A DNA stretch of 64,000 bases from Anaeromyxobacter diazotrophicus (GTDB lineage Bacteria; Myxococcota; Myxococcia; Myxococcales; Anaeromyxobacteraceae): NCBI RefSeq assembly GCF_013340205.1, contig NZ_BJTG01000003.1, forward strand, positions 124,001-188,000, written 5' to 3'. Shown here one piece after another: positions 3,891-63,347 of this stretch; position 1 is the stretch's first letter, and each line of letters opens with the position of its first letter. The position numbers and the translations under genes are program-made. The notes below the pieces were generated by a model that was given only the letters and a program-made list of their open reading frames with translations, was not told the DNA's origin and ran no database searches.

Positions 3891-5801
3891 ATGATCAAGC
3901 TCCTGGCCGTTTGCGCGTCGTTGCTGGCGCTCGCCGCGTGCGAGCACGCTCCGGCGTTCTACCGCGTGGACCATGACTCGCTCGCGCTCGTCCCGCCGAC
4001 GCGCGCCGACCGGCCCGTCGCGCCTTCGAGCCGGCCGTACGCCCGGCTCGAGTTCATGGCGCTCCCCTCCGCGCGCTCGTTCCTCGATCAGGGCATCGTC
4101 ACGGTGAAGGTGGTGAGCGGCGCCGTGGAGGTGAACCGGGCGTTCGCCGCCGCGCGCGCGCTCGCGCCCGACGCGAAGGAGCGCTGGTTCGCGAGCGTCG
4201 CCGTGCCGGTGTCCGAGACGGGCGCCGTGAAGGTCGCGATGACCGTCAGCCTGGTGAAGGGGGTCAACACCGCGGAGAAGATGACCCGCATCGCCGCGGC
4301 GAGCCAGGACCTCCTGGCGATGTTCCCGGTCGCGTACGGGGTCGCCACCACCGCCAAGGGCGCGGTCGAGCTCGCCGCTGCGATGTCCGGCGGGAGCGTC
4401 GAGGAGTCGTACGCGCAGACCTTCGACGTCGGCGTGGGGCCGAGCTGCGCCGAGGCGACGGCGGCCTGCCTCGACGCGCGCGGCGACGACACGTTCGTCG
4501 TGGTGTGGGGCGCCTCGAGCCCGGAGAAGGCGGCGAGGCTCAAGCTCGACGCCGGGGTGCTGCGCAACCGCGACGCCAGCGCGGCGCAGGAGCCCGGGCT
4601 GGCGGTGCGGGTGACCACGCCGTCCTTCCCCGCCGAGGTCTTCAGCCCCGAGGCGCGGGTCAGCCTGGAGGGCGCCGCGCCGCGCGACGGCGGGGCGATC
4701 CAGGAGGGCCAGCTCCACGAGGAGCTCGTGGCGCCCGCCCACCGGCCCGCGCTGCGCGAGCTCAGGACCGCCCTCAACGCGGCGCGGGCGAGCGGCGGCC
4801 CCGAGGACGCGATCGCGCTGGCGGTCGAGGACCTCGAGGCCTGGACGCAGCGCACCTGCGGGCGGGAGCTCGCGCCCGACGCCCTGCCGTGCACGGCCGC
4901 GTCGAGCGTCGTCGCCCGCCACCGGAGCGCCAGCCCGGCGCTGAAGCCGCTCGCCGCCGCCCTGAGGCGCTGGCGGGCCCTGTCGGCGCAGCTCGCCGGG
5001 CCGCCGCAGCGCGGCCGGGACGCCTGCCAGGCCCTCGACGACGACCGGAGCGCGTACGTGGCGGTGGACGCCGAGACCGACCACCTGCTCGCCGATCATC
5101 CGCAGCTCGCCGCGAAGGCCCCGGGGCTCGGCGCGGCGCGCCGCGAGGCGACGGCTGGCGTGCGCGACCTCGCCGACGCCTGCTTCGCGCTGCGGCTCGG
5201 CGTCGCCGGCCAGCAAGATCCGGCGGCGAACCCGGTGCTGGGGTCGATCGCTGCGGCGGACGTGAAGCGGGGCGCGTTCTACATCCCGAACCGCGCGGCG
5301 ATCGGCGCGCCGGGCCTGGAGCGCATCCGCGAGGCGGTGCGGTCGGCGCGCGCGGCCGTGGCGAAGCTCGCGCCGCCGAAGCTGGAGCTGCCGACCCTCG
5401 ACTGGTTCGTCACCGTCGCCGAGACGCAGTGCGCGGACGCCGCCGCGGTCGAGCGGATGCTGGAGCGGCGAGGGGACGCCATCGTCACCATCATCAGCTC
5501 GTACCTCGACGACGCCGTCGAGGCCGCGAGGCCGCACGCGTGCGAGCAGGACGTGGCCGCGCTGCTCCGGCAGGCGAAGGAGCTGGAGGCGGTGCCGGGC
5601 GACAAGGACGCGGTGGCCGACCTGGCGAAGAAGCTCAAGGGCACGCGCGACGCGCTCCTCGCCGCGGTGCGGAAGTCCGAGGAGCTCGAGCGGGCGCAGC
5701 CCGGGACCGCGGGCCGGTGCAGCGGCGCGAGCGCGGAGCCCGCGGCGGCGAAGCCGAGCGCGGGAGCGCCGAGCGGCGCGCAGGCCGCCTCTCGGTCGTG
5801 A
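3891..5801 (+). CDS. Large predicted lipoprotein of unknown function
   Basis: A 636-residue protein with a lipoprotein signal: MIKLLAVCASLLALAAC, lipobox LAAC with Cys17. The ribosome binding site is weak, so the start rests on the signal peptide. The body is Ala/Arg/Glu-rich and mostly helical, with no motif I recognise; Cys pairs at about 184/190 and 335-350 may form disulfides. The C-terminus is low-complexity (SAEPAAAKPSAGAPSGAQAAS). Its flanks are oppositely oriented, so it is monocistronic. Location would be the periplasmic face of a membrane. No function is proposed. Confidence 0.75.
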   Translation: MIKLLAVCASLLALAACEHAPAFYRVDHDSLALVPPTRADRPVAPSSRPYARLEFMALPSARSFLDQGIVTVKVVSGAVEVNRAFAAARALAPDAKERWFASVAVPVSETGAVKVAMTVSLVKGVNTAEKMTRIAAASQDLLAMFPVAYGVATTAKGAVELAAAMSGGSVEESYAQTFDVGVGPSCAEATAACLDARGDDTFVVVWGASSPEKAARLKLDAGVLRNRDASAAQEPGLAVRVTTPSFPAEVFSPEARVSLEGAAPRDGGAIQEGQLHEELVAPAHRPALRELRTALNAARASGGPEDAIALAVEDLEAWTQRTCGRELAPDALPCTAASSVVARHRSASPALKPLAAALRRWRALSAQLAGPPQRGRDACQALDDDRSAYVAVDAETDHLLADHPQLAAKAPGLGAARREATAGVRDLADACFALRLGVAGQQDPAANPVLGSIAAADVKRGAFYIPNRAAIGAPGLERIREAVRSARAAVAKLAPPKLELPTLDWFVTVAETQCADAAAVERMLERRGDAIVTIISSYLDDAVEAARPHACEQDVAALLRQAKELEAVPGDKDAVADLAKKLKGTRDALLAAVRKSEELERAQPGTAGRCSGASAEPAAAKPSAGAPSGAQAASRS

Positions 5802-5858
5802 GAACGCGACGAGCGCCCTGGCTCGGAGCGCGGCGCGGCGATCCCGCCGGTTCGCGGT

Positions 5859-6251
5859 TCAGAGGAGCTCGATCCGCGCGCGATGGCCGTGAGCCCGCGC
5901 CAGCTTCGCGTCGCGCGTGACGAGCGGGGCGTCCAGGGCCTCCGCCAGCGCGAGGTACATCGCGTCGTACGCGGTGACGGCGTGGCGCAGCTCCCAGGCG
6001 CGGTGCAGGAGGACGGCGTGTCCGTACCGCCTCAGCGGCAGATCGAGGAGGTCCGCCAGCGCGCGCTCTCCCTGGCGCGCCGACAGCTCTCCCGCCGCCG
6101 CGTATCGGCGGATGGCCTGGGTCACCTCGACGTCGACGAGGTGCGGCGCATGGAGGGTCTCGGTGGGGTCGAGCAGGCGGGCCGCGGCGCGAGGCGCCGC
6201 ATCGGTCCCGAGGAGCAGCTCGAGCAGGGCGGAGGCGTCCGCGACGATCAC
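5859..6251 (-). CDS. vapC: VapC-type PIN-domain toxin
   Basis: A 130-residue protein, the usual size for VapC. The four acidic residues of the PIN fold are in place: Asp5 (MIVADASALLELL), Glu42 (HLVDVEVTQAIRRY), Asp96 (HAVTAYDAMYLALAE) and Asp114 (LVTRDAKLARAHG). The family are Mg-dependent endoribonucleases that cut tRNA or rRNA and stop translation until bound by the cognate antitoxin. Its ATG overlaps the stop of the upstream antitoxin gene by four bases (ATGA), so the two are translationally coupled. All catalytic residues are present, so I expect an active toxin. Confidence 0.9.
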   Translation of the reverse strand: MIVADASALLELLLGTDAAPRAAARLLDPTETLHAPHLVDVEVTQAIRRYAAAGELSARQGERALADLLDLPLRRYGHAVLLHRAWELRHAVTAYDAMYLALAEALDAPLVTRDAKLARAHGHRARIELL

Positions 6252-6478
6252 GTGCGGTCGCGCTCCGCCCGGATGGCCGCCGCCGGCGAGACGCGGAGCT
6301 TGACCCGCGGTCGGGAGAGGAGCCGGTCACGCAGCTCCTCGAGCGTCGGCTGCTCGGCGACGCGGCGCGCCTCGCGGGCCAGCAGCTCGGACAGCGTGAC
6401 CCCCTCCTTGGCCGCCTTGATCTTGAGCCTCCGGTGGACCTCGTCGGGGACGTTCCGGATCTGGATCATGCGGGCCAT
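6248..6478 (-). CDS. vapB: VapB/FitA-type ribbon-helix-helix antitoxin
   Basis: A 76-residue protein starting at ATG 6478, chosen because AGGTGAG lies five bases upstream; GTG at 6487 and ATG at 6469 are alternatives. The N-terminus MIQIRNVPDEVHRRLKIKAAKEGVTLSELLAREA is a classic FitA/Arc-type ribbon-helix-helix: a beta strand followed by two helices that dimerise and bind DNA. The C-terminal half (TLEELRDRLLSRPRVKL) is the toxin-wrapping tail. It is the first gene of the pair and probably autorepresses through the direct repeats just upstream. Confidence 0.85.
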   Translation of the reverse strand: MARMIQIRNVPDEVHRRLKIKAAKEGVTLSELLAREARRVAEQPTLEELRDRLLSRPRVKLRVSPAAAIRAERDRT

Positions 6479-6491
6479 GCGGCTCACCTAG

Positions 6492-6510
6492 TCGCATGTG
6501 ACTCGCATGT
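6492..6510. promoter_or_regulatory. Direct-repeat operator of the vapBC-like pair
   Basis: TCGCATGT occurs at 6492-6499 and again at 6503-6510, exactly one helical turn (11 bases) apart, 14 bases before the antitoxin start. This is the expected geometry for two ribbon-helix-helix dimers bound side by side. The function is inferred from position and the antitoxin family. Confidence 0.55.
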
Positions 6511-6538
6511 CAACCGCACCAGGCTGCCGCGGGCGTGC

Positions 6539-7435
6539 TCAGCCCGGCTCGCCCGCGGGCGCCTTCCCGCGCTCCCCGAAGGCGATCGCGACCAGCACGC
6601 CCGAAGCCGTGATGACCGCGCCCACGTAGGTGAGCGGGCTCGCCCGGACGCGGTGCTCGAACAGCGCGTCCACGAGGAGCGCCATGACCGGCTCGACGAG
6701 CACGAGCGTCGTCACCGTGGCGAGGCTGACGTGGCGCACGAGGTAGAAGTAGGCGCCGAAGGTGACCACCGATCCGAACACGGCGAGGTAGAGCAGGGCG
6801 GCGGTGGGCGCGAGCGGCAGGGGCGACGGGACCGGGCGGCGCTCGACCGCCGCCGCGAGCAGCCACAGGGCCGCCGCGGTCGCCGGGAAGAACACCGCCG
6901 TGTTCGCGAGCGAGCTCGAGCCGGAGGCGTGCCGCTTCACGAGGACGGTGAAGGTCGAAGCGCATGCGACCGAGCCGAGGATGAGCCCGACCGCCAGGCC
7001 CTGGCCCGCCGAGACGGACATCCTGTCCCTGAAGATGACGGCGATGCCGGCGAGGCCGACGAGCGCGCCGGCGATGGCGCTCGGCCGCAGGCGCTCGGTC
7101 CCGGTGACGCGGGCGATGGCGGCGGTCACGAGCGGCATGGTGCCGTACAGGACCGCGGCGATGCCGCCCGGCACCTCCTCCTCGGCGCGGTAGACGAGCG
7201 CGTAGCCGGCCGCGTTGAGGAGACCGCTCACCGCGAGCCACCCCACGGCGCGGCGGCGCGGGCGAGGCTGGCCGAGGCCGAGCCCCAGCGCCACCGCGAG
7301 GATCCCGGCCGCGACGGTGAAGCGGAGGGCGGCGGAGAGGAAGGTCGGGTAGCCATCCGGACCGATGCAGACCCGGATGGCGTACCAGGTCGTTCCCCAG
7401 ACGAGGGCGCAGACGGCGTAGGCGAGCGCGGGCAC
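6539..7435 (-). CDS. EamA/DMT-family permease
   Basis: A 298-residue integral membrane protein with about ten hydrophobic helices in two homologous halves, as in the drug/metabolite transporter superfamily. Signature pieces are ALVWGTTWYAIRVCIG at residues 10-25 and the second-half counterpart GSVVTFGAYFYLVRHVSLATVTTLVLVEPVMALLVDALF, which carries the typical P-containing TM9. Members export amino acids, metabolites or drugs at the cytoplasmic membrane; the substrate cannot be told from sequence. The gene ends 61 bases upstream of the antitoxin start and reads the same way, but the intervening operator suggests separate transcription. Length is normal. Confidence 0.85.
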   Translation of the reverse strand: MPALAYAVCALVWGTTWYAIRVCIGPDGYPTFLSAALRFTVAAGILAVALGLGLGQPRPRRRAVGWLAVSGLLNAAGYALVYRAEEEVPGGIAAVLYGTMPLVTAAIARVTGTERLRPSAIAGALVGLAGIAVIFRDRMSVSAGQGLAVGLILGSVACASTFTVLVKRHASGSSSLANTAVFFPATAAALWLLAAAVERRPVPSPLPLAPTAALLYLAVFGSVVTFGAYFYLVRHVSLATVTTLVLVEPVMALLVDALFEHRVRASPLTYVGAVITASGVLVAIAFGERGKAPAGEPG

Positions 7436-50368: not shown

Positions 50369-51277
50369 ATGCGTATGCGGTGTCACATAGAGGTAGGCGT
50401 CTCGCCCGTCTTGGCGCTCGGGAGGGATGTCGCGCGCTCGATCATCCTCGTTGCGCCTGAGCGCGTCGAGCAGGTGCGAGCTCTCGTTCAGGACCTGACC
50501 CTGATCATCTCGAACGATGGCGCACCACGCTGTTCGATAGACCCAAAGGGCAAGACCATCACGGTGTCACGCAAAATGCTTGAGCACCTATGGTGTACGG
50601 CGCTGGCCTACTGGGTTCTCTACTCGCGCCATCTCGCGGGAAGAACGGTAACGAAGCGCGAGGAGCTGGATCTTACGGCAGATAAGCAGACGTATGCCGC
50701 CATGAAGCTGCTAAAATGGTCGATCGATACCGTCATCCGCTCAGTCGATAAGCCATGGCCTGAGGGGCTATATAGGCCCTGCGTTAATCCGGACCACGGA
50801 TCTGAGGTTCATGTTGCAAACGAGCTGCTCTTTACCGCGGTCGCGTTCTTGCTGCATCACGAGCTGAGTCACTATCGTCTTGCCCATTCGGCCGGAACGG
50901 AACGTGTCGATACGATCGACCAAGAGCGCGATGCCGACTACGAAGCGGCCAACTGGATGCTTGGTGCGTGCCGTGGCGAAGTGTTAGTTAAGCGCTCGAT
51001 CGGGGTCGCTACTGCATTCATGGCGATGGTTGCCCTCGATATTCACGCCCGTCGGTACGAGCCTGCACGGCACCCTCGGTCGATCGAGAGACTGATCAAC
51101 ACTCTCGACAGATATGTCACCGATCCGCACCACGTCGTGTGGGGGCTGACTGTCGGTTCTCTAAAGGTTCACCTTGATTTCATGAATGTGAAGGTCCACA
51201 ACCGCGCCTTCGAAAGCGCGAGGCAGGCGGCAGAGGAGTACGCTGAGGTGCTCTCCCGTCAGCCGGCGTCGGATTAA
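50369..51277 (+). CDS. Lit-type (peptidase U49) phage-exclusion protease
   Basis: A 302-residue protein with the zinc-protease motif HHELSH (His164-Glu165-x-x-His168) in AFLLHHELSHYRLAHSAG, followed by the downstream acidic DTIDQERDADYEAANWML, where a Glu (186) is a candidate third ligand, as in the U49 family. Lit of E. coli cleaves elongation factor Tu when triggered by a phage coat peptide and so aborts infection. Codon use and GC are plainly different from the left part of the window, suggesting recent transfer. The start is ATG 50369 or 50375. The target here cannot be known from sequence. Confidence 0.75.
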   Translation: MRMRCHIEVGVSPVLALGRDVARSIILVAPERVEQVRALVQDLTLIISNDGAPRCSIDPKGKTITVSRKMLEHLWCTALAYWVLYSRHLAGRTVTKREELDLTADKQTYAAMKLLKWSIDTVIRSVDKPWPEGLYRPCVNPDHGSEVHVANELLFTAVAFLLHHELSHYRLAHSAGTERVDTIDQERDADYEAANWMLGACRGEVLVKRSIGVATAFMAMVALDIHARRYEPARHPRSIERLINTLDRYVTDPHHVVWGLTVGSLKVHLDFMNVKVHNRAFESARQAAEEYAEVLSRQPASD

Positions 51278-53454: not shown

Positions 53455-54387
53455 GTGCCTGAGCCACACCCGCTTCTCGGTCTGCCTCGCCATATCCTTG
53501 CGTCACGGGAGGCATACGATGCGTGTGTCGCCTCGTTGCCTGAGGTCTTCCCGGTCGGCTCAGCGTCCGCTTCAGCGCAGTTTCACTACCTGAAGCTCGA
53601 CGGAAACGGCCAGCCGAAGCTCGCCGCACTCGCCGAGTGTCTCGTCGACCACCTTGTCAACTACGCACTATCGGCGAAGCGTACCGCCGCCGCCGATTTC
53701 GCGGAGACCCGGGGGGCGCGCCAACGGCAGCACAGCCGGATCAACCGGGAAGCGCGTCGGCTCCTCCGAGAGTACCCGACCAGCGGCGAGAGCGGCGAAC
53801 TGCTCCTGTACTTGATCCTGGAGGTTGTACTTGGGGCGCCGCAAGCAGTCGCGAAGATGGAGCTTAAGACAAATCCCCGCGTAGAAGTCCATGGGTCAGA
53901 CGGAATTCATATGCGGTACGACGAGACTCTTGACTGCTTGGACGTGTTCTTCGGTGAATCCAAGCTTGAGCAGACCGTCTCCGGAGCCCTTCGCTCAGCG
54001 TTCCAGAGTATCGAGAATTTCCACGATCACGCGATGGCGCAGCACGAGTTTGGCCTCGTGACAAGTAACTTCAAGTACATGGATGAGCCGTTGCGGCAGG
54101 CTGTCGTTCGGTATCTCGATGGTCAGCAGTTACAAGCCTGCAGAGTCAATCACGCACTCCTGATCGGATATGACTCGCCCGATTATGCGACGTGCGTGGG
54201 TAACAGTTTTCGTGAAGCCGAGCAGGAGTTTCGACGCGTATATGCGGAGAGAGCGCCACGATGCGTCGAGCTGGCGATCGAGAGGCTTCGCGAGTTCAAG
54301 TACAGGCACTTGCGGTTCGAGGTATTCTTCATGCCCTTCACTACTGTCGAAGACTTTCGAGCGGCGTTCTATCGGGCCGTTGAATAG
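53455..54387 (+). CDS. hamA: Hachiman nuclease HamA (DUF1837)
   Basis: A 310-residue protein starting at GTG with GAGG upstream. The DUF1837 core is GESGELLLYLILEVVLGAPQAVAKMELKTNPRVEVHGSDGIHMRY...LDCLDVFFGESKLEQTVSGAL, where Glu115, the Asp149 region and Glu168-Ser-Lys170 form the PD-(D/E)XK-type site expected of HamA. It is followed 14 bases later by the helicase gene, the defining order of the Hachiman anti-phage system. In known systems HamB helicase activity on damaged or phage DNA releases HamA to cut DNA. All motif residues are present, so I expect a working system. Confidence 0.9.
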   Translation: MPEPHPLLGLPRHILASREAYDACVASLPEVFPVGSASASAQFHYLKLDGNGQPKLAALAECLVDHLVNYALSAKRTAAADFAETRGARQRQHSRINREARRLLREYPTSGESGELLLYLILEVVLGAPQAVAKMELKTNPRVEVHGSDGIHMRYDETLDCLDVFFGESKLEQTVSGALRSAFQSIENFHDHAMAQHEFGLVTSNFKYMDEPLRQAVVRYLDGQQLQACRVNHALLIGYDSPDYATCVGNSFREAEQEFRRVYAERAPRCVELAIERLREFKYRHLRFEVFFMPFTTVEDFRAAFYRAVE

Positions 54388-54401
54388 AAGGCAGGCAGAC
54401 G

Positions 54402-56930
54402 GTGCCCGAGAACGCAGCCATCGTAGAACTGTTTGAGGAGTTGCTCGTTGCCGCTGCTTCGCGCCGACTCCCAGGAGAGGGCCCTGTTGTCGCGCTCCCT
54501 GCTCGTGACAAGTGCTCACGCTTGGTCGCGTATGCTTCCGAACTCGCCCTGTCATCGCTGCCGGCAAACCGCACCGCAGCATACGAAATCGCGACACGCC
54601 TGGTAGAGTTGCTCGATGACGACGACGTAATTGTCGCCACCGCCGACTTCCTTTTGTCGCGGCTCGGGAATTTCCCGGGGCGGGGCCTGCTGCGGGCCCG
54701 ACATCCTGATCGGTCTCGGCCCTGGACGATCTCGCTCCTGCTCGAGCAAGTGGCTCGTGAGACGGAGAATTCGGTCGAGACGGGCGGCGGGCAATCAGAA
54801 CTCGTGACGGACTTCCAGCGCGCCTTCGCCGATGCGCTGCGGGCACGAGCGGCGCTTAGCGTGTCCGCTCCGACGTCTGCGGGTAAGTCGTTCGTCCTCT
54901 CAATGGAAATCGTACGCCGCGTCATCGCTGGTGCCGGCAGCGGGCGGCGCGAGGTTGTCGTCTACATCGTTCCGACGCGCGCACTCATTCGCCAGCTCAC
55001 GCTGAGGCTCGTGAAGCAATTCGCCGCGCACGAGCATCTGTCGATCCCAGTGCGAAATGTGCCGCTGCCTCCATCCGACCCGGAGAGCAGCATCGTATAT
55101 GTACTGACTCAGGAGCGGCTGCTGACGCTGCTGGAGTCGCCGGAAGGCTGCCCGCCGATCACGATGCTGGTGGTCGATGAAGCTCAGGGTGTTCGAGATG
55201 GGGCACGAGGCATTCTGCTGCAGTCATCCATCGAGCAGACACTGAGTCGGTACCCGGAGGCCAGTGTAGTATTTGCGTCGCCGCTCACCTGCAATCCCGA
55301 ATACCTGTTGGGACTTTTCGGTCGTGGCTCAGGCGCGCGCCTACTTGAAGAGCATTCGCCCGTGTCCCAGAACGTCTACCTCGTGTCTCCGGCGGACGGC
55401 GCTCCTGATGAAGTGATCGACGTCTCGCTGCTGCGCGGTTCGAAGCGCCTGCCGGTGGGCAGACGCACGCTCGACTTCCCGTATGGCGGTTCGGGCGTAG
55501 TAAAACGTCGCGCGCGATTCGCTGCGGCCGTCACCTCGGAGGCGGAAAGCACTCTCGTCTACTGTAATGGGCCGGCTGAGGCGGAGCGCGTTGCGCAGGA
55601 ACTTGCAGAACTCCAGACGGCGTCTCGCGCCCTCAGTCCCGCGCTCGAAGAGTTCATCGAATTCATTCAGGATCACGTCCATCCGGAGTACCCGCTGATC
55701 CCGGTGTTGAAGCGCCGGGTCGCATTTCACTACGGAGACATGCCTGCTCTCGTGCGGTCTCGCGTTGAAGACCTGTTCGGCGATGGCACTATCCGTTACG
55801 TAGCTTGCACGAGCACGCTGCTGCAGGGAGTGAATCTACCGGCTCGGCACGTCGTTCTTGAGTCGCCGAGGCGCGGGTCCAATGAACCGATGGCGCGAGC
55901 CGACTTCCTGAACATGGCCGGGCGCGCGGGCAGACTATTCAAGGAATTCCACGGTGAAGTGTGGTGTCTCTCGCCGGAACGGTGGCGCGACCCGTGCTAC
56001 GAAGGGGCAACGCTGCAGGAGATTCGGTCGGCTTTCGACGATGTGATCGCGTCGCATCCGAACGTCATGCTCGACGCGCTCGAAGGCTCCGCAAAGGGCG
56101 ACGCGCGTGAGCTCGGCGAGGCCGCCGTGGGAAAGGCTTTCGCAGACTACACCTCACGCGGAGTGCCGATCCCGTTTCGCCTCGACATGGAGCCGCAGAC
56201 CGTTGACGCGCTTGCCGCGGTTGACCGCAGGCTGTCCACGCTCGGCGTGCGACTCCCGCACAGCGTCATAGCGCGGAACGCCACGGTGATGCCTGACCGT
56301 CTACAGGCGTTGTATGACGACCTTGCGTCGCGTGACCTCGATGAGTGTCTGCCGCTCGTGCCTTACGAGGTCGGATGGTACGAGCGTCTCGAGTTCATCT
56401 TCACGCTGGTGGACGCAGTCTTGGATCGGCGCGCTGGTGAGCAGTACAAGTACCTAGCGTGGCTGGCAAGCCGATGGATTGTCGGAAAGCCTCTTTCCGA
56501 TATTCTCGCGTCGCAGGTCGGGCGGAAGCGTAATGAGCCTCGATACAAGGGCAATGTAAGCGCGATCATTCGCGAGGTACTGAAGGACATAGAATACGAG
56601 GTGCGGTTCTCCTACGTCAGGAAGGTGAAGGCTTATTGCGATGTGCTGGGTCACGTGTTGGTGGAGAGGCAGCGACCTGCGGATGCCCACTCCATAACGC
56701 CGCTTGCGTTGTACTTGGAGTGTGGAACTCACGAGCCGGTCGTGATGGCGCTTCTCTCGGCAGGCTTGTCGCGGACTACGAGCCTGCTCGTGCGTGATGT
56801 GATTCGCGTGCCGGAAGACGCCACGACCGAAGACTGCATTCGCGAACTCAGAACGCTTTCGCTCGATCGCACAACGCTGCCTTCGATGTGTGCACGGGAA
56901 ATCCGCGAGATGCTCGGGATTGACGCATGA
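54402..56930 (+). CDS. hamB: Hachiman helicase HamB
   Basis: An 842-residue superfamily 2 helicase starting at GTG. Motif I is APTSAGKS (157-163 region), motif II is VVDEAQ (257-262), a DEAQ rather than DEAH box, and motifs V/VI appear in STLLQGVNLPARHVVLESPRRG and NMAGRAGR. That lineup, together with a preceding DUF1837 gene, defines Hachiman. The N-terminal 140 residues are helical and the C-terminal 250 have no recognised domain. It senses and translocates on DNA and controls HamA. Low-GC codon use relative to the left of the window indicates transfer. Confidence 0.9.
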   Translation: MPENAAIVELFEELLVAAASRRLPGEGPVVALPARDKCSRLVAYASELALSSLPANRTAAYEIATRLVELLDDDDVIVATADFLLSRLGNFPGRGLLRARHPDRSRPWTISLLLEQVARETENSVETGGGQSELVTDFQRAFADALRARAALSVSAPTSAGKSFVLSMEIVRRVIAGAGSGRREVVVYIVPTRALIRQLTLRLVKQFAAHEHLSIPVRNVPLPPSDPESSIVYVLTQERLLTLLESPEGCPPITMLVVDEAQGVRDGARGILLQSSIEQTLSRYPEASVVFASPLTCNPEYLLGLFGRGSGARLLEEHSPVSQNVYLVSPADGAPDEVIDVSLLRGSKRLPVGRRTLDFPYGGSGVVKRRARFAAAVTSEAESTLVYCNGPAEAERVAQELAELQTASRALSPALEEFIEFIQDHVHPEYPLIPVLKRRVAFHYGDMPALVRSRVEDLFGDGTIRYVACTSTLLQGVNLPARHVVLESPRRGSNEPMARADFLNMAGRAGRLFKEFHGEVWCLSPERWRDPCYEGATLQEIRSAFDDVIASHPNVMLDALEGSAKGDARELGEAAVGKAFADYTSRGVPIPFRLDMEPQTVDALAAVDRRLSTLGVRLPHSVIARNATVMPDRLQALYDDLASRDLDECLPLVPYEVGWYERLEFIFTLVDAVLDRRAGEQYKYLAWLASRWIVGKPLSDILASQVGRKRNEPRYKGNVSAIIREVLKDIEYEVRFSYVRKVKAYCDVLGHVLVERQRPADAHSITPLALYLECGTHEPVVMALLSAGLSRTTSLLVRDVIRVPEDATTEDCIRELRTLSLDRTTLPSMCAREIREMLGIDA

Positions 56931-57243: not shown

Positions 57244-58026
57244 TCACTCAGGTGGCCAGAGCTTATGTTCGTGCTGCTTCATCAGGTTCATCTGCGTCGT
57301 ATCGGCGATGACAGCCCGCACCATTCCGCTGACTTCCTGAGCAGCGACTAGTACGGCCGCAAGAACTGCCCATTCAAATCCGACCAGCAGCTTGATCACG
57401 AACGGCAGTGCCCAGGCGGCATATCGAAACGCGCCCAGAAAACCTGGCTGCTTGATCCGCACCTCGCTGCGCAGTGTCTCCGCCGTAAGGCGCGGCGCCA
57501 CGTCGGATTCATGCTTCGGGCGCTCCCCAGCGTGAAAGAAGACCTGCCAAGACTCAACCGAAACCGTTGGATGTTCCCTGTTGCTCCAAAGCAGATGCCA
57601 CAGAGACGAGTCCGTCCGCTGGAGGTGCCTGATCGCATCCCCACGCGCCACGTCGACGCTGATCGCGTTGGGCGGCTGCCCAGCTTGCGCATTCGACCAG
57701 ACTTCATCGTACCGTTCTGAATCGAGCCACAGTGTCACGGTGACACTGGGTGGGGCTCCGTCTTCCTTGGTGTGAACTGTTAGTTCACCTGTGCCTTCTG
57801 TGCCAGGTAGTGCCCGAATCAGCCGGACTGTGCCCTTTGCACCCTCGAACGTTCCACCGGTCTCCAGATCCGGGCCGCTACCGAGACCGGTCTCGATGAA
57901 CCACTGGATGCTTGGCAAGAGCCAAGGCTTCGAGGGATCAGCGTCCGTCGACCGCGAGTTCCCGACGATTTTGCCTACGTATGTGCCCACTGTGTTGAAG
58001 AAGAACCCAGCGGTCCTGTCGTTCAT
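57244..58026 (-). CDS. Unknown protein with C-terminal membrane segment
   Basis: A 260-residue protein with AGGTGA eight bases before the ATG. Residues 1-190 are a soluble domain of unknown type (GGTFEGAKGTVRLIRALPGTEGTGELTVHTKEDGAPPSVTVTLWLDSE). The C-terminal region has a hydrophobic stretch (AWALPFVIKLLVGFEWAVLAAVLVAAQEVSG) that could span the membrane once or twice, ending in a basic tail. I know no family. It reads opposite to hamB and the same way as the next unknown gene, with 167 bases between them. Confidence 0.65.
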   Translation of the reverse strand: MNDRTAGFFFNTVGTYVGKIVGNSRSTDADPSKPWLLPSIQWFIETGLGSGPDLETGGTFEGAKGTVRLIRALPGTEGTGELTVHTKEDGAPPSVTVTLWLDSERYDEVWSNAQAGQPPNAISVDVARGDAIRHLQRTDSSLWHLLWSNREHPTVSVESWQVFFHAGERPKHESDVAPRLTAETLRSEVRIKQPGFLGAFRYAAWALPFVIKLLVGFEWAVLAAVLVAAQEVSGMVRAVIADTTQMNLMKQHEHKLWPPE

Positions 58027-58193: not shown

Positions 58194-58748
58194 TCAGATG
58201 CGACGCCTCAAAGTCTCTACGAGTGTCTCGCCATTCTTGATTCGGCCCATCGCCTTCCGGATATAGGAGTCATCCACGCCGCGTTCTATGCGGTGTGCAA
58301 GCTCCTCCATCTGCAGCGCGGTCTCGACCGAGAGATGCCCGTTGTCGTTCAACAAGCGAACCTCGTCGGCGAGTGCATGATATGCAGCGCCCTTACGTAC
58401 CCCGTCGTCCGGGCGCAGTGCGACAACCTCGCCATCAGCGGGGTTGAACGACCGTAACTCGGGCCAGAGCGCGGGCGGCTGTAATACTCGTCGCCCGGCC
58501 GCAACCGCCGCCCCGTGCAACCATGGCAGCCATTTGCTCAAGGGAAACAGTAGTGCAGCGACGGTGGACCACCAGCGAGTGGCAGAGTTGATCAGAAAGC
58601 GTTGCCATGCCCCAAGCGCCTTGAGTCGCCGGGCGGACTCGGCGGCGGTCTCTGCCGCCTCGTCCAACAACGCCTTCTGCCTCGCCGTCTGCCGCAGCTG
58701 GTCGATAAGGAGCAGCTGCTCCTGGCTGTATCCCGCGAAGATGTCCAC
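58194..58748 (-). CDS. Unknown protein with membrane-active helix
   Basis: A 184-residue protein. GTG 58748 is chosen because GGAGG lies five bases upstream. The N-terminal helices are amphipathic (QEQLLLIDQLRQTARQKALLDEAAETAAESARRLKALGAW), followed by a hydrophobic stretch (TVAALLFPLSKWLPWLHGAAVAAG), then a soluble helical tail (VALRPDDGVRKGAAYHALADEVRLLNDNGHLSVETALQMEELAHRIERG). No family is recognised. With 57244-58026 it may form a unit of two membrane-associated proteins. Confidence 0.6.
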   Translation of the reverse strand: MDIFAGYSQEQLLLIDQLRQTARQKALLDEAAETAAESARRLKALGAWQRFLINSATRWWSTVAALLFPLSKWLPWLHGAAVAAGRRVLQPPALWPELRSFNPADGEVVALRPDDGVRKGAAYHALADEVRLLNDNGHLSVETALQMEELAHRIERGVDDSYIRKAMGRIKNGETLVETLRRRI

Positions 58749-59079
58749 GCTGCCTCCTGTCGGTGTCCACGGCTGGTGGCGGGTCTGGTCATCGGCGGCA
58801 CGCACCGCCCTCAGCGTCTTCGTCGATTACTCCTACCACGGGTGTCGTGGAAGGCGGGACCGCCGCCCAGGTGGCTTGACTTCCGCACCGCGCTTCAATG
58901 GCGGTCGCTGGCCTTCACGCTCAACACGAACGTGGCGGGTACTCCGCCGAGACAGTAGCATTTGCGCTGCAGGTCTGCGTAACCGGAACGGCTCCGTCCG
59001 TTGCAACGGAATGGCGATGGCGAATGGTTGCGATTCGTATGGCGATGCGAATCCGGTTAGGCCGGGAACCGAAGGTGCG
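58749..59079. other. Non-coding region with palindromes downstream of the GIY-YIG operon
   Basis: No gene is supported. It contains the perfect 14-base palindrome TCCGTTGCAACGGA (58997-59010) and the hairpin GATTCG (59032-59037) / CGAATC (59048-59053). Both lie just past the stop of the minus-strand operon. Their role, terminator or binding site, is unknown. Confidence 0.4.
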
Positions 59080-59808
59080 TCACGGAAGCGACCTACCTGA
59101 GCCGACCCGTGCAAGGAGATCGAGAAACGAGGGCTCGTACTGCCCCTCGACGTGGCGGTTGTTCCAGAGGCCCGAACCTCGGACACGCTCGTGACCGCTG
59201 TGGTGTCCCAGCCAGCCAGATGATGGCGGGTCCACCGGGTCTTTCGCGAGGTTGCTCAGTAGGGCGATGGCGTTTCGCTCGATCACACTGCGCATGCTCT
59301 CTGGTCCGGGTGGGTCATCTACTCGGACGAACAGGAAGGGCATCGCACCGATGATGCCGCTCACGGCGACCTCGGTCGAACGCTCCACCTCGATGACCGT
59401 GCCGGGACTCAAATTGCGGGCGCGCGCCACGTCGCGAGGGCTCCCGCCGACGCCCCAGGTTTCGATGTGAGCCTGGTCGCGCCGCAAGAGCGCCTCTCCG
59501 ACGAGGAGCCGGAAGATCGAGCCGCGATGATTCCCTCCTCCGGACTTCGCTACCCCTCTGTGCTGGGAGAGGCGGTTCCAAAGCGTCCGGGTGGAGGTGG
59601 ACGTGAGCGCGTGAGTCCCGACTCTGACAACGCGTGGCCCGATCCCCGACGTGCTCCGCTCCTCGCCAGGCTCGAAGAAGAAGTAAACGCCTCTGGTCGG
59701 CCAGGTCATGCGCCCGTGGCAGCCTCGCAGGCTGAGCGGCCCCCCGAGGCGGTGCTGCACGTCCGCGAGGACCTCGTAGAGGCGCTGGATGTCCTGGAGC
59801 CTGCTCAC
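59080..59808 (-). CDS. GIY-YIG nuclease-like protein
   Basis: A 242-residue protein that starts at a GTG overlapping the DUF6884 stop by four bases. Near the N-terminus is TRGVYFFFEPGEERSTSGIGPRVVRVGTHAL...TRTLWNRLSQHRG, matching the GIY (GVY) and YIG (VRVG) strands and the conserved Arg of the helix. GNHRGSIFRLLVGEALL follows. The fold cuts DNA with one metal. The remaining 130 residues are unknown (a possible DNA-reading part). Last gene of a four-gene minus-strand operon. Confidence 0.75.
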   Translation of the reverse strand: MSRLQDIQRLYEVLADVQHRLGGPLSLRGCHGRMTWPTRGVYFFFEPGEERSTSGIGPRVVRVGTHALTSTSTRTLWNRLSQHRGVAKSGGGNHRGSIFRLLVGEALLRRDQAHIETWGVGGSPRDVARARNLSPGTVIEVERSTEVAVSGIIGAMPFLFVRVDDPPGPESMRSVIERNAIALLSNLAKDPVDPPSSGWLGHHSGHERVRGSGLWNNRHVEGQYEPSFLDLLARVGSGRSLP

Positions 59809-60284
59809 GGTCGGACCCCGGCGTGGATGTCGAACCAGTGAAGCTGCTTCCCGATGCCGAGGCCCTCCAGCGGCACCTCGACCCGGCAGACCGCGCTCAG
59901 GCGCGGGACCAGGAACTCGCGGTAGCGCATGCCGGCGAGCAGGACGATTTGCTGGACGCTTGCCAGGCGGGGCTCGAGCTGCTCCAAGACGCGGCGGGCC
60001 CACTCCCGGCGTTGCGCCACCGCCATCGTGTTCAGGGTGCGCTCGTAGGGCTCGACCTCGGCGTCAGGCTCCAGAAGGCCATACTGAGCGGAAAGGATGA
60101 ACCAGGGCATCCCGGTCCGCTCGATGTATCCGTGTGCTTTCACGAACCAGGGCGAGATGTACAGGTCCCGCGCCTTAGACCGGGCAGACCGCTTCTGCGA
60201 CACACAGGAGACGAGGAAGACCGAGGACGACTGCGGTGGCCCAGTTCCGGTGGCGTCCTGTCCCGCTCCACCATGCGCCTTCAT
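59805..60284 (-). CDS. DUF6884 protein
   Basis: A 159-residue protein matching DUF6884: FLVSCVSQKRSARSKARDLYISPWFVKAHGYIERTGMPWFILSAQYGLLEPDAEVEPYERTLNTM, and AGMRYREFLVPRL. The family is found near DNA modification and repair genes and resembles the accessory part of tRNA-guanine-transglycosylase-like base-exchange systems; its reaction is not known to me. It is in the middle of a four-gene operon and overlaps the GIY-YIG gene. The C-rich SCVSQKR segment may bind a metal or nucleotide. Confidence 0.75.
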   Translation of the reverse strand: MKAHGGAGQDATGTGPPQSSSVFLVSCVSQKRSARSKARDLYISPWFVKAHGYIERTGMPWFILSAQYGLLEPDAEVEPYERTLNTMAVAQRREWARRVLEQLEPRLASVQQIVLLAGMRYREFLVPRLSAVCRVEVPLEGLGIGKQLHWFDIHAGVRP

Positions 60285-60309
60285 CGTGACACCCCCGCCT
60301 GCTCGCGAC

Positions 60310-61092
60310 TCAGCGAGCGTGGCGCTGAGCAGCGCGCACCATTCGCGAAAGGTCCGTGCGCAGTCGTCCCGGGCAGGCCCGCTCCCCTTGCGGCTGTATG
60401 ATCACGTGGTCGCGCGCCAGCCACTTCGCGGCGACTGGCTCAAGGTGCCTCGCCAAGTCGTATCCAATGACCCAGACCTGGTTGAGCTTGTGGAAGCGCG
60501 ACAGGCGAGGTCCGATGAACTGCGTAAACGCGGACCGGACGAGATCGCGGTACCGGCTCCCAGTTACTGCGCGTCCGCCGCCTGGCGCGTAGAGTGCCAC
60601 GGGCGAAACGTCCAGCAACCAGATACCTCGCTCCTGGAGGCGCGCGAGGGTGTCGATCTTCCAATGGATGCGATCTCGCAAACCGTCGCGGTTGCGTGCC
60701 CGGGACCTGCGCGGCTGAACAGCATCAACTGAGCCGTACGCAAGCGCACCGAAGATATCCCAGTATTGGCGAGTGCCGGCGTTGCGTTTAGGGGGAGCGA
60801 AACATAGCTCCGGTTCGCCGTATCCGAGGCAGTAGACGAGTCGCACGAATCGATTCGGTAAGGTCACCGGACAAGCGTCATCGACGGCAGGTGGAAGAAC
60901 TACTCGTGTGGCTGAGTCTCCCGGTTGTTCTGCGACATGGCTCTCGGCCAGAACGACGAACCGGACAGCGGCATCTGGCGGTTTCCACGCCACGCGCCAT
61001 GCGTTGACCGCCTCAAGGTAGTGGGCCGATTCGGGAACGAGCCCCCAGCCTCGTGCGAAGGCGCGAGCCGCCATGGACGTGATCGCGGGCAT
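60310..61092 (-). CDS. Uncharacterised protein, possibly uracil-DNA-glycosylase-like fold
   Basis: A 260-residue protein. Segments RFVVLAESHVAEQPG, NRFVRLVYCLGYGEPELCFAPP, QYWDIFGALAYGS, LARLQERGIWLLDVSPVALYAPGG and KLNQVWVIGYDLARHLEPVAAKWLA are reminiscent of the uracil-DNA-glycosylase superfamily (early glycine/acidic strand and a late VI.G..A strand), but the match is loose and no catalytic motif is certain. The gene lies 21 bases after DUF6979 and 25 bases before DUF6884, so it is part of the operon. The call is tentative. Confidence 0.55.
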   Translation of the reverse strand: MPAITSMAARAFARGWGLVPESAHYLEAVNAWRVAWKPPDAAVRFVVLAESHVAEQPGDSATRVVLPPAVDDACPVTLPNRFVRLVYCLGYGEPELCFAPPKRNAGTRQYWDIFGALAYGSVDAVQPRRSRARNRDGLRDRIHWKIDTLARLQERGIWLLDVSPVALYAPGGGRAVTGSRYRDLVRSAFTQFIGPRLSRFHKLNQVWVIGYDLARHLEPVAAKWLARDHVIIQPQGERACPGRLRTDLSRMVRAAQRHAR

Positions 61093-61113
61093 TCTCGCTG
61101 GTCAGATTGGGGC

Positions 61114-61509
61114 TCAGCGGCGAATGTGGCCCGCATTCCACAGGCCAAGAACGACATCCATCTGGCCGTTCGGCTGCTTCCACTCGCCGCCCTGCACTTC
61201 AAGCCACAGAGTGACCGGAGTTGGAAGGACCGGCGAGGCTCTCCGCCGCAGGATATTCACCGCGGCGACCGCGTACTGCTTGTTCTTGACCGACCTCGTG
61301 TAGGTACCGGAAGGCGCGCCGGGCACCCCGACCACGAGGCCCTCCTCACAGAGGCCGAGGAATGCTCCCTGCGGGCATCCCTTCTCCTGGCTCGAGACGC
61401 TCTCGAACGTGCGCGCCACCGCTCTGCGCCACGCCTCGGGCGGCGCGAACCTCTCTAGCTTCACCAGATTCACAGCGGCGACGGCCGCCTCGCCGTATCC
61501 CCTTGCCAT
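61114..61509 (-). CDS. DUF6979 protein, first gene of the operon
   Basis: A 131-residue protein with GGGGGAC just before the ATG. ARGYGEAAVAAVNLVKLERFAPPEAWRRAVARTF and SSQEKGCPQGAFLGLCEEGLVVGVP...NKQYAVAAVNILRR...QMDVVLGLWNAGHIRR fit the DUF6979 family as I know it. Its biochemical function is unknown. It heads the minus-strand operon and diverges from the Nmad3-like gene across 366 bases. Confidence 0.65.
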   Translation of the reverse strand: MARGYGEAAVAAVNLVKLERFAPPEAWRRAVARTFESVSSQEKGCPQGAFLGLCEEGLVVGVPGAPSGTYTRSVKNKQYAVAAVNILRRRASPVLPTPVTLWLEVQGGEWKQPNGQMDVVLGLWNAGHIRR

Positions 61510-61875
61510 CTCGTCCCCCGATCACTGCCGAAACGACCGATGCGACCCCCGAAGCGAATCACGTCTTGCAGCAGCCGTCGATCCCAAAACCTGGGCAAGC
61601 CCCGCCGGCCGTGTGGCTGCGGAGCGTAGCGCGAGGTCGTCGGCCGCCGGCCGGCGTCACCTTGCTCGTCTTGGGAATGCGGCACGTCGAGGGTTGACCC
61701 CGATCAGCGCTTCTTTGCTCCCGGTCCTGGTAACGATCATCAGGGGGACGAGATCTGACCCATCACGCTGCCGGGACGCATCGAGCTTCTCGCGTTGGCC
61801 CCGAACGCGACATGGGATGAGCCGCGATGACTGGAGCCGCGTCATGACGCGCCTTGAAGCGAGGGCAGCGTGAGC
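61510..61875. other. Divergent promoter region between the two gene sets
   Basis: No gene is supported. Transcription of both the four-gene minus-strand set and the two-gene plus-strand set must start here, making it a good place for a shared regulator. I cannot point to clear promoter boxes or an operator. Confidence 0.4.
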
Positions 61876-62640
61876 ATGCGCGCGGCTTTGGTCCGGGTCG
61901 GCATCGACCAAGCCTTCGGGCGCTGGAACGCTCCTGTGGACCCCGCGACGAACGAGTTCGTCTACGTGCCGATCCCCGAGGAGCGAGACTGCGCGAAGGC
62001 GTTTGCGACGCCGTACTCGCAGAGCACGGTGGCGCTCCACGCCTTCGCGGCGGCACGTCCGGACCTTGATCCGACGGCGGTCAGTCTGCCGTCACCGCTG
62101 ACCGGGCGGAACACGCACCTCGACCCTGACTTCCGTCACATGACTTACGGTGACAGCGGCGCTCGGCGCGGGCGAGGGCTGTGCGAGTTCGAGCGGGGAG
62201 ACCTCGTGGTCTTCTACGCCAGCCTTCGTCCCGTGCGCCCGTGCGAGCATCGCCTCGTCTACGCGATCATCGGGCTCTTCCGCGTCGTGGAGGCCATTCG
62301 CTTGCGCGATGTGCCAAAGCACAGGTGGGCCGAGAACGCGCACACGCGACGGTTGGACCGAAAGGACACGGACATCATCGTCCGAGGCGATATCGCAACC
62401 AGCGGGAGGCTGCGCCACTGCATCCCTATCGGAGAGTGGCGCGAGCGGTCGTATCGCGTCCGCCGCGATCTCCTGGAGGTCTGGGGCGACATCTCGTGCC
62501 GCAACGGCTTCATCCAGCGCAGCGTCGTGCCCCCGACGTTCCGGGCCCCCGAGCGCTTCGTGGCGTGGTTCGACCGGCAGGACGCCGAACTCATCGCAGC
62601 GAACAATCCAGAGACCTCCGAGATGGCGAGGGCACGATGA
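61876..62640 (+). CDS. Nucleotide-modification-associated domain 3 (Nmad3-like) protein
   Basis: A 254-residue protein. ATG 61876 has GAGGGC 11 bases upstream (GTG 61870 is an alternative). The start RAALVRVGIDQAFGRWNAPVDPATNEFVYVPIPEE is typical of the Nmad3 domain, a family defined by its neighbourhood with DNA-base modification genes; a later part (GDLVVFYASLRP, LVYAIIGLFRVVE) continues the same fold. The reaction is unknown. The stop overlaps the start of the next gene (ATGA), so they are coupled. Confidence 0.7.
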   Translation: MRAALVRVGIDQAFGRWNAPVDPATNEFVYVPIPEERDCAKAFATPYSQSTVALHAFAAARPDLDPTAVSLPSPLTGRNTHLDPDFRHMTYGDSGARRGRGLCEFERGDLVVFYASLRPVRPCEHRLVYAIIGLFRVVEAIRLRDVPKHRWAENAHTRRLDRKDTDIIVRGDIATSGRLRHCIPIGEWRERSYRVRRDLLEVWGDISCRNGFIQRSVVPPTFRAPERFVAWFDRQDAELIAANNPETSEMARAR

Positions 62641-63347
62641 GGTTCTGGCTCTACAAGCTCACGTATGACAATGGCGGAGCGCCGTGCGCCTTCAGGTCCG
62701 TCTTGTCGCTCGCGATCTGCAAACCGCGCATCAGGGAGTGGGCGCGGCCCGGAGACTGGATCGTGGGGTTCGGGGGGCGGAGCAGGCCGCAGTTGCGCGG
62801 CGAGCGGCTCATCTACATGGCGGAGGTCGCGGAGAGGCTGACTCCTTGCCGCTACTACGAGGACGCCGCCTACGCCGGCAGGCCCGACTGCATCTACGAG
62901 AGAAAGGGAGATGGACTCGTCTGGAAGCCCGGCAGCCGCTTCCATCTCTACGGGTCGGGCGTCGCGAGAGACCTCGGACCCGAGCCGCACTACCCCAAGG
63001 CGAACGTGCTCCTTAGCACCAACTTCCGCTACCTCGGCGCGGCCGGGACCGAAGACTACAAGGCCAAGCACCCCGCTCTCGCAGCGGCCGTGGAGGCGAA
63101 GGGGGTGGGGCAGTCGGCATACGAGCCGGGCTCGACCATCGGCCGCGAGCTTGCCGCGCTTCAGCGCGAACTCTGGCGAGAGCACGCCGACCGCCGCGTT
63201 CTCGGCCATTCGACAGAGCCTCCCGAACAGGGCGGCGAGTACGTGGACGCTGGTGCGGAAGGTCAGGTTGCCACGCGGCGCGGCCCGGGCTGCTCAGGGC
63301 CCAGAACCATCGTGCGTGAGCACCGACGACGCGGGGCGAGTTGCTGA
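62637..63347 (+). CDS. Nucleotide-modification-associated domain 2 (Nmad2-like) protein
   Basis: A 236-residue protein beginning MRFWLYKLTYDNGGAPCAFRSVLSLAICKPRIREWARPGDWIVGFGGR and LIYMAEVAERLTPCRYYEDAAY, which match the Nmad2 layout (LAICKP.IR, GDWIVG, LIYM). Such proteins occur next to modified-base genes in phages and bacteria. The start overlaps the Nmad3-like stop by four bases. The C-terminal 60 residues are Arg/Gly-rich and unlike the rest; a frame change near the end is possible. Confidence 0.7.
   Translation: MRFWLYKLTYDNGGAPCAFRSVLSLAICKPRIREWARPGDWIVGFGGRSRPQLRGERLIYMAEVAERLTPCRYYEDAAYAGRPDCIYERKGDGLVWKPGSRFHLYGSGVARDLGPEPHYPKANVLLSTNFRYLGAAGTEDYKAKHPALAAAVEAKGVGQSAYEPGSTIGRELAALQRELWREHADRRVLGHSTEPPEQGGEYVDAGAEGQVATRRGPGCSGPRTIVREHRRRGASC

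What the first reader, a model, noticed from the sequence alone, without database searches (positions are those of the whole stretch)
59080..63347. Candidate undescribed DNA-modification/recognition module: DUF6979, unknown, DUF6884, GIY-YIG facing Nmad3-Nmad2
Six genes read outward from one 366-base promoter region. The minus set is DUF6979, an unknown (loosely uracil-glycosylase-like), DUF6884 and a GIY-YIG nuclease, with 21-base, 25-base and 4-base-overlap junctions. The plus set is two nucleotide-modification-associated domains overlapping by 4. Combining proteins linked to modified bases with a nuclease suggests a system that makes, senses or cuts modified DNA. This is inference from domain company.
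Basis: partly seen in the sequence, partly recalled or inferred. Interest (0 to 1): 0.85.

Follow-up and report, generated by a model that had tools for sequence, protein, structure and literature searches.

The report
Two neighbouring candidate anti-phage gene pairs
The six genes are real but are not one new system: they are a widespread, still untested candidate defence pair (a DNA-base-handling protein plus a nuclease-like protein, already listed as PDC-M57), a second separate pair (Nmad3 and Nmad2), and two poorly connected genes, all sitting in a bacterial defence island.

Summary
The six ORFs, families and junctions are as described. The six-gene "module" is not conserved. The conserved unit on the minus strand is DUF6884 (59805-60284) plus the GIY-YIG-like gene (59080-59808), which PADLOC already lists as candidate defence system PDC-M57 (A and B). 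In 79 of 87 loci carrying the nuclease-like gene, from many bacterial phyla, a DUF6884-family partner lies next to it or is fused to it: 25 upstream as here, 49 downstream (a divergent DpdC-like subtype), 5 fused. P3 (60310-61092), Nmad3 and Nmad2 occur in none of the 80 genome loci outside this phylum, and DUF6979 is near one. The plus pair Nmad3-Nmad2 recurs in a relative without the minus set; ordinary Nmad2 belongs to a TIR-Nmad2-MazG(-UDG) operon. Hachiman (HamAB) and a Lit-type peptidase lie just upstream and G+C drops, so this is a defence island. Best mechanism: DUF6884 recognises or flips an abnormal base and its partner cuts the DNA. The nuclease call rests on motifs and fold topology only; Pfam, HHalign and Foldseek did not confirm it. 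The "uracil-glycosylase-like" reading of P3 has no statistical support.

The parts
59080..59808 (-). GIY-YIG-like putative endonuclease, PADLOC PDC-M57B (GTG start, overlaps DUF6884 stop by 4 bases)
   Evidence: PADLOC M57B 5.3e-77; motifs GVY, RVGT, LxxRLxxH, ExNxI, LWN; AlphaFold2 pLDDT 94.5; no Pfam match and no significant fold match
59805..60284 (-). DUF6884 (YaaA/DpdC-like fold family), PADLOC PDC-M57A; CVSQK and LSAQYG motifs intact
   Evidence: Pfam PF21818 5.4e-50; PADLOC M57A 6.1e-42; motifs
60310..61092 (-). P3, unknown 260-aa protein, 25 bases upstream of DUF6884; not part of the conserved core
   Evidence: No family match; one relative found, in an unrelated genome without defence context
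61114..61509 (-). DUF6979 protein; not part of the conserved core; homologues in prophages and lambdoid phages
   Evidence: Pfam PF22399 8.4e-42; viral homologues
61510..61875 (.). 366-base divergent intergenic region
   Evidence: no sigma-70-like site
61876..62640 (+). Nmad3 protein (ORF from 61870; conserved start ATG 61876)
   Evidence: Pfam PF18754 1.3e-23; relatives 57-60% identical
62637..63347 (+). Divergent Nmad2 protein, ATGA overlap with Nmad3
   Evidence: Pfam PF18753 3.2e-24; same order in G037
53455..56930 (+). Hachiman HamA (53455-54387) and HamB (54402-56930): context, shows a defence island
   Evidence: PADLOC HamA 5.6e-83, HamB 9.6e-213

Best explanation
The locus is a stretch of a defence island holding two independent two-gene modules back to back. 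Module 1 (minus strand, core DUF6884 + GIY-YIG-like = PDC-M57) is a two-component DNA-targeting system: the DUF6884 protein binds DNA in its positively charged cleft and recognises, flips or chemically acts on an abnormal base (a phage base modification, an abasic site or a ribonucleotide), and the GIY-YIG-like protein, held in the same complex or polypeptide, cleaves that DNA. It would work like a compact modification- or lesion-dependent (type IV-like) restriction system. Module 2 (plus strand, Nmad3-Nmad2) is a separate pair. P3 and DUF6979 share the minus transcript but are accessory or passenger genes. Shown here: gene order, families, coupling and fusions of the M57 pair, intact motifs, island context. 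From papers: YaaA-like fold and lesion interaction of DUF6884; DpdC acting on a base in DNA. Inferred: nuclease activity, the substrate, and defence itself.
For: PADLOC M57A/M57B hits. A scan of about 85,000 genomes with the GIY-like alignment gave 196 relatives; of the 80 loci kept, 76 have a DUF6884-family gene adjacent or fused; with other loci 79 of 87: 25 upstream, 49 downstream, 5 fused; CxxxK kept in 75 and LSAxxG in 71 of 79. Fusion with 48% and 38% identity to the window proteins in relative G032. Adjacent pair on a Deinococcus plasmid and in 7 of 10 viral contigs. No third gene family recurs in more than a handful of loci. Ordered motif signature GxY / xVGT / LxxRxxxH / ExNxI in 47 of 56 family members and 0 of 20,000 shuffles; ordered beta-beta-alpha / alpha-beta-alpha elements in a pLDDT 94.5 model. 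DUF6884: cantaloupe fold, DNA cleft, YfjM binds abasic/RNA-base lesions (PMC11701544); DpdC is DUF6884/DUF328 and converts dPreQ0 to dADG in DNA (PMC11888242, PMC12839542). Hachiman and Lit next door and G+C falling from about 0.73 to 0.60-0.67 from 48 kb on.
Against: GIY-YIG membership failed every statistical test: Pfam PF01541 in 1 of 61 members at E 0.32, no PDB profile hit, HHalign probability at most 2%, Foldseek no hit at E<=0.001 in PDB or viral models. No defence activity has been reported for PDC-M57 in the papers searched; PDCs as a class are described as mostly unvalidated (PMC12988326). The pair could be a DNA-repair unit. Four haloarchaeal plasmid copies lack an adjacent DUF6884 gene. 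Neighbour genes include some defence genes, but no background control was run.
Confidence: 0.55

Rival explanations
1. The M57 pair is a DNA-repair unit rather than defence: DUF6884 recognises a lesion (abasic site or ribonucleotide) in the cell's own DNA and the GIY-YIG-like enzyme incises it, as UvrC does in excision repair.
For: B. subtilis YfjM (DUF6884) was found among proteins bound to abasic and RNA-base lesions (PMC11701544). E. coli YaaA is an oxidative-stress DNA-binding protein. The motif order resembles UvrC-type GIY-YIG.
Against: Patchy distribution (window genome and G032 are the only ones of the sampled family in which the pair was seen), presence on plasmids and viral contigs and placement beside Hachiman and Lit fit a mobile defence gene better than housekeeping repair.
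Confidence: 0.25
2. All six genes form one make-sense-cut system for modified DNA; the combination is rare and only by chance absent from the sampled genomes.
For: Tight spacing, a shared divergent promoter region and all-nucleotide-related annotations.
Against: P3, Nmad3 and Nmad2 in none and DUF6979 in one of the 80 GIY-like loci; Nmad3-Nmad2 recurs alone in G037; DUF6979 occurs alone in G032, G025, prophages and lambdoid phages; the only P3 relative stands among unrelated genes.
Confidence: 0.06
3. Nmad3 and Nmad2 are readers of modified bases (PUA/EVE-like) that work as a separate type IV-like or signalling module; in G037 a predicted PD-(D/E)XK/NERD-like nuclease gene follows them.
For: In G037 a 415-aa ORF with a sub-threshold NERD match (E 0.003) follows Nmad2 by about 75 bases. 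Nmad3 is followed by another small protein in G027 and faces one in G036, or carries a C-terminal extension in G157 and a viral contig. Ordinary Nmad2 lies in TIR(ThsB)-Nmad2-MazG_C(-UDG) operons, and NMAD/UDG/MazG genes are among predicted defence genes in PMC13092281.
Against: The PUA/EVE resemblance is by eye only and was not tested; no PDB profile match for Nmad3; the link between Nmad2 and the alternative partners is weak (HHalign 11% and below); the window itself has no nuclease after Nmad2.
Confidence: 0.3

Closest known systems
PADLOC candidate system PDC-M57 (M57A + M57B)
   Same: Both proteins match the two M57 models strongly (6e-42 and 5e-77), adjacent and on one strand.
   Different: In the window two extra genes (P3, DUF6979) precede the pair. 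Most relatives elsewhere use a divergent partner downstream that matches M57A only at 5e-5.
DUF6884 family (PF21818), incl. B. subtilis YfjM and DpdC; distant kin of YaaA (PF03883)
   Same: 169.5 bits against a cut-off of 30, both signature motifs present.
   Different: Stand-alone 159-aa protein coupled to a nuclease-like gene; no Dpd genes were recognised next to it.
GIY-YIG endonucleases (UvrC N-terminus, URI family)
   Same: Order and spacing of GVY, xVG, LxxRLxxH and ExNxI motifs; beta-beta-alpha-(insert)-alpha-beta-alpha topology.
   Different: The Tyr of YIG is replaced by an invariant Arg; a large conserved insert (GGGNHRGSIFR); no significant profile or fold match.
TIR (ThsB)-Nmad2-MazG_C(-UDG) operons
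   Same: Share the Nmad2 domain.
   Different: The window's Nmad2 is a divergent member without TIR, MazG or UDG neighbours, paired with Nmad3 instead.

Membership tests
PDC-M57 (PADLOC candidate defence system) | Protein matching the M57A model | tested here: met
   6.1e-42, 141 bits
PDC-M57 (PADLOC candidate defence system) | Protein matching the M57B model, adjacent to M57A | tested here: met
   5.3e-77, 4-base overlap
PDC-M57 (PADLOC candidate defence system) | Anti-phage activity | not testable with these tools
   No activity reported in the papers searched; PDCs mostly unvalidated (PMC12988326)
DUF6884 (PF21818) | Score above curated cut-off; CxxxK and LSAxxG motifs | tested here: met
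   169.5 vs 30 bits; CVSQK, LSAQYG
GIY-YIG endonuclease | Match to PF01541 or a GIY-YIG profile | tested here: not met
   1 of 61 members at E 0.32; HHalign <= 2% against UvrC and URI types
GIY-YIG endonuclease | Ordered catalytic motifs GxY, YxG, R, E | tested here: inconclusive
   47 of 56 members have the ordered set, 0 of 20,000 shuffles; the YIG Tyr is Arg. The pattern was written from this family after seeing it, so it is not an independent test
GIY-YIG endonuclease | Fold | tested here: inconclusive
   Topology fits in a pLDDT 94.5 model but Foldseek gave nothing at E <= 0.001 in PDB or viral models
Uracil-DNA glycosylase superfamily (for P3) | Match to PF03167 or a UDG profile | tested here: not met
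   No Pfam hit; HHalign probability <= 0.3%; only two sequences and a pLDDT 34 model, so power is low
Dpd (7-deazaguanine in DNA) system | DpdA and DpdB with DpdC | not tested
   The whole genome was not searched for DpdA/DpdB; none recognised among the neighbours examined
Nmad3 (PF18754) / Nmad2 (PF18753) | Score above curated cut-off | tested here: met
   84.4 vs 27 bits and 86 vs 26.1 bits
TIR-Nmad2-MazG-UDG operon | TIR, MazG_C and UDG genes beside Nmad2 | tested here: not met
   None of the three found around the window's Nmad2
DUF6979 (PF22399) | Score above curated cut-off | tested here: met
   142.7 vs 27 bits

The most novel reading that the evidence does not exclude
The M57 pair is a new two-component, modification- or lesion-dependent restriction system in which a YaaA/DpdC-fold protein flips and checks a base and a divergent, perhaps new-fold, nuclease partner cuts. 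It exists in two gene orders plus fusions across many bacterial phyla, and the commoner order (partner downstream) is probably missed by current defence-finding models.
Probability: 0.3. Interest if true: 0.7.

Novelty: new member of a known kind. Interest (0 to 1): 0.42.

Why it matters
It dissolves an apparent six-gene novelty into recognisable parts and shows where a real open question lies. The DUF6884 + GIY-like pair is nearly obligate, occurs fused, has a second gene order that PADLOC's M57A model scores only weakly, and still lacks any reported activity. Because DpdC and YfjM link the same fold to modified or damaged bases, the pair makes a concrete, testable prediction: cleavage that depends on an abnormal base.

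Tried and rejected
P3: genome, viral, plasmid and phage searches found nothing at first; the G057 hit is spurious, lying at the end of an ABC-type gene's frame; one true relative in G330, no more with the two-sequence profile; the single-sequence AlphaFold2 model was useless (pLDDT 34) and its fold search meaningless. UDG hypothesis for P3: a first HHalign run used wrongly chosen ORFs, repeated with the matched segments, still nothing. GIY-YIG confirmation by PDB profile, Pfam, HHalign and Foldseek all failed. Nmad2, Nmad3 and P3 have no close relatives among the phage records searched. DUF6979 neighbours in viral contigs gave no link to the other families. A common third partner of the M57 pair was sought and not found. 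A search for the same island elsewhere in the family found no relative sharing the six-gene block at DNA level.

Full report
Observation. Pfam confirms DUF6979, DUF6884, Nmad3 and Nmad2 well above their cut-offs; nothing in Pfam, NCBIfam or PHROGs covers the "GIY-YIG" protein or the 260-aa unknown, here called P3. PADLOC-DB, however, recognises two of the genes: DUF6884 is PDC-M57A (6e-42) and the GIY-like protein is PDC-M57B (5e-77). So the heart of the minus set is already listed as a candidate defence pair.

Context. Just upstream lie Hachiman HamA and HamB (53455-56930) and a Lit-type peptidase (50369-51277). G+C falls from about 0.73 to 0.60-0.67 from about 48 kb on. No member of its sampled family shares the six-gene block at DNA level. 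The setting is a variable defence island.

Is it one module? The GIY-like protein was used as the probe because it gives enough relatives. A scan of about 85,000 genomes gave 196 relatives, of which 80 loci with up to 5 kb of flank were kept, from Alpha-, Beta- and Gammaproteobacteria, Acidobacteriota, Chloroflexota, Planctomycetes, Nitrospirota, Desulfo-groups and others. None holds P3, Nmad3 or Nmad2, and one (L123) has DUF6979 within 2 kb on the other strand. In the window's own phylum DUF6979, Nmad3 and Nmad2 occur apart from DUF6884. The six-gene module is therefore not a conserved unit.

What is conserved. An iterated DUF6884 profile finds a DUF6884-family partner beside or fused to the GIY-like gene on the same strand in 79 of 87 loci: 25 upstream as in the window, 49 downstream, 3 with DUF6884 fused N-terminally and 2 C-terminally; 75 of 79 keep CxxxK and 71 keep LSAxxG. 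Most downstream partners overlap the GIY-like gene by 4 bases. The fusion in G032, a relative of the window's genome, is 48% and 38% identical to the two window proteins. The loci were chosen by the GIY-like gene alone, so this adjacency is not a product of the selection. The downstream partner matches DUF6884 at or below threshold (30.3 and 23 bits) and PADLOC's M57A only at 5e-5, with DpdC models slightly better; it is a distinct subtype that a standard PADLOC run would probably miss. No other gene family recurs in more than six loci. An unnamed domain of about 80 residues precedes DUF6884 in seven of these proteins and also occurs in the partner gene of L085.

Is the partner a nuclease? Its 56-member alignment keeps G-V-Y, R-V-G-T, L-x-x-R-L-x-x-H, E-x-N-x-I and LWN, in the order and spacing of GIY-YIG enzymes, with Arg in place of the YIG tyrosine; 47 of 56 carry the whole ordered set and none of 20,000 shuffled sequences does. 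The pattern was written after seeing the family, so this is suggestive only. AlphaFold2 gives a confident model (pLDDT 94.5) with the expected beta-beta-alpha, insert, alpha-beta-alpha order. Against this, Pfam, PDB profile search, HHalign and Foldseek (PDB and viral) gave no significant match. I treat it as a probable but unproven GIY-YIG relative with a large insert, or possibly a new fold.

How it may work. DUF6884 has the YaaA "cantaloupe" fold with a positive cleft; its member YfjM was found bound to abasic and RNA-base lesions and is modelled with a flipped base (PMC11701544). DpdC, also DUF6884, converts dPreQ0 to dADG in DNA (PMC11888242, PMC12839542). Coupled to a nuclease-like partner, the simplest reading is base recognition or flipping followed by cleavage: a compact modification- or lesion-dependent restriction system, with DNA repair as the main rival. 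Substrate, cleavage and defence are inferred, not shown.

The plus pair. Nmad3-Nmad2 recurs, in order, in G037 without the minus set, followed there by a 415-aa ORF with a weak NERD-nuclease match. In G027 Nmad3 is followed by a different small protein and in G036 faces one; in G157 and one viral contig it carries a C-terminal extension. Ordinary Nmad2 sits in TIR(ThsB)-Nmad2-MazG_C(-UDG) operons on plasmids and in other Myxococcota-like genomes; NMAD, UDG and MazG genes appear among predicted defence genes in PMC13092281. The window's Nmad2 is a divergent member outside that operon.

P3 and DUF6979. P3 has one detected relative (35-41% identical), in an unrelated genome and without defence neighbours. 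Both sequences share LAESHV, YCLGYGE and GIWLxD, but profile comparison with UDG families gives at most 0.3% probability, so the uracil-glycosylase idea is unsupported, with low power. DUF6979 occurs in prophages and near the right end of lambdoid phages.

Verdict. Real genes in a real defence island; the six-gene system is not supported; the minus core is a member of an already listed but untested candidate system, for which this work adds the near-obligate pairing, fusions and a second gene order.

Noticed in passing
window 53455-56930 and 50369-51277: Hachiman HamA/HamB pair and a Lit-type (peptidase U49) gene upstream of the finding; together with the G+C drop they mark a defence island from about 48 kb on.
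   Followed up: partly
L158, L159, L160, L161 (about 4500-7430); L185-L188: Conserved operon of ThsB-like TIR, Nmad2, MazG_C-type pyrophosphohydrolase and often uracil-DNA glycosylase, on plasmids and in Myxococcota-like genomes. It resembles predicted defence genes in PMC13092281.
   Followed up: partly
L100:5001-6343, L081 and about 47 further loci: Second architecture of the M57 pair: the GIY-like gene first, then a roughly 217-aa DpdC/DUF6884-like gene overlapping by 4 bases. PADLOC's M57A model scores it only at 5e-5.
   Followed up: yes
L077, L084, L096, L104, L113, L123, L149 (N-terminal to DUF6884) and L085:5702-6697: A shared domain of about 80 residues, RAGD...NRxPxVCSAL...REGP, attached to DUF6884 partners. 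Pfam did not recognise it in the proteins scanned.
   Followed up: partly
window 57244-58026 and 58194-58805 (minus strand): Two genes between Hachiman and the finding with no Pfam or PADLOC match above threshold.
   Followed up: no
L051:11504-12751: A 415-aa ORF right after Nmad3-Nmad2 in G037, with VVVEVKL like a PD-(D/E)XK/NERD nuclease (NERD E 0.003).
   Followed up: partly
L071, L072, L074 (haloarchaeal plasmids): GIY-like genes without an adjacent DUF6884 gene but regularly near a DUF6610 gene.
   Followed up: no
phage records LR595868.1, JX509734.1, LR595864.1: DUF6979 homologues near the right end of lambdoid phage genomes; function unknown.
   Followed up: no
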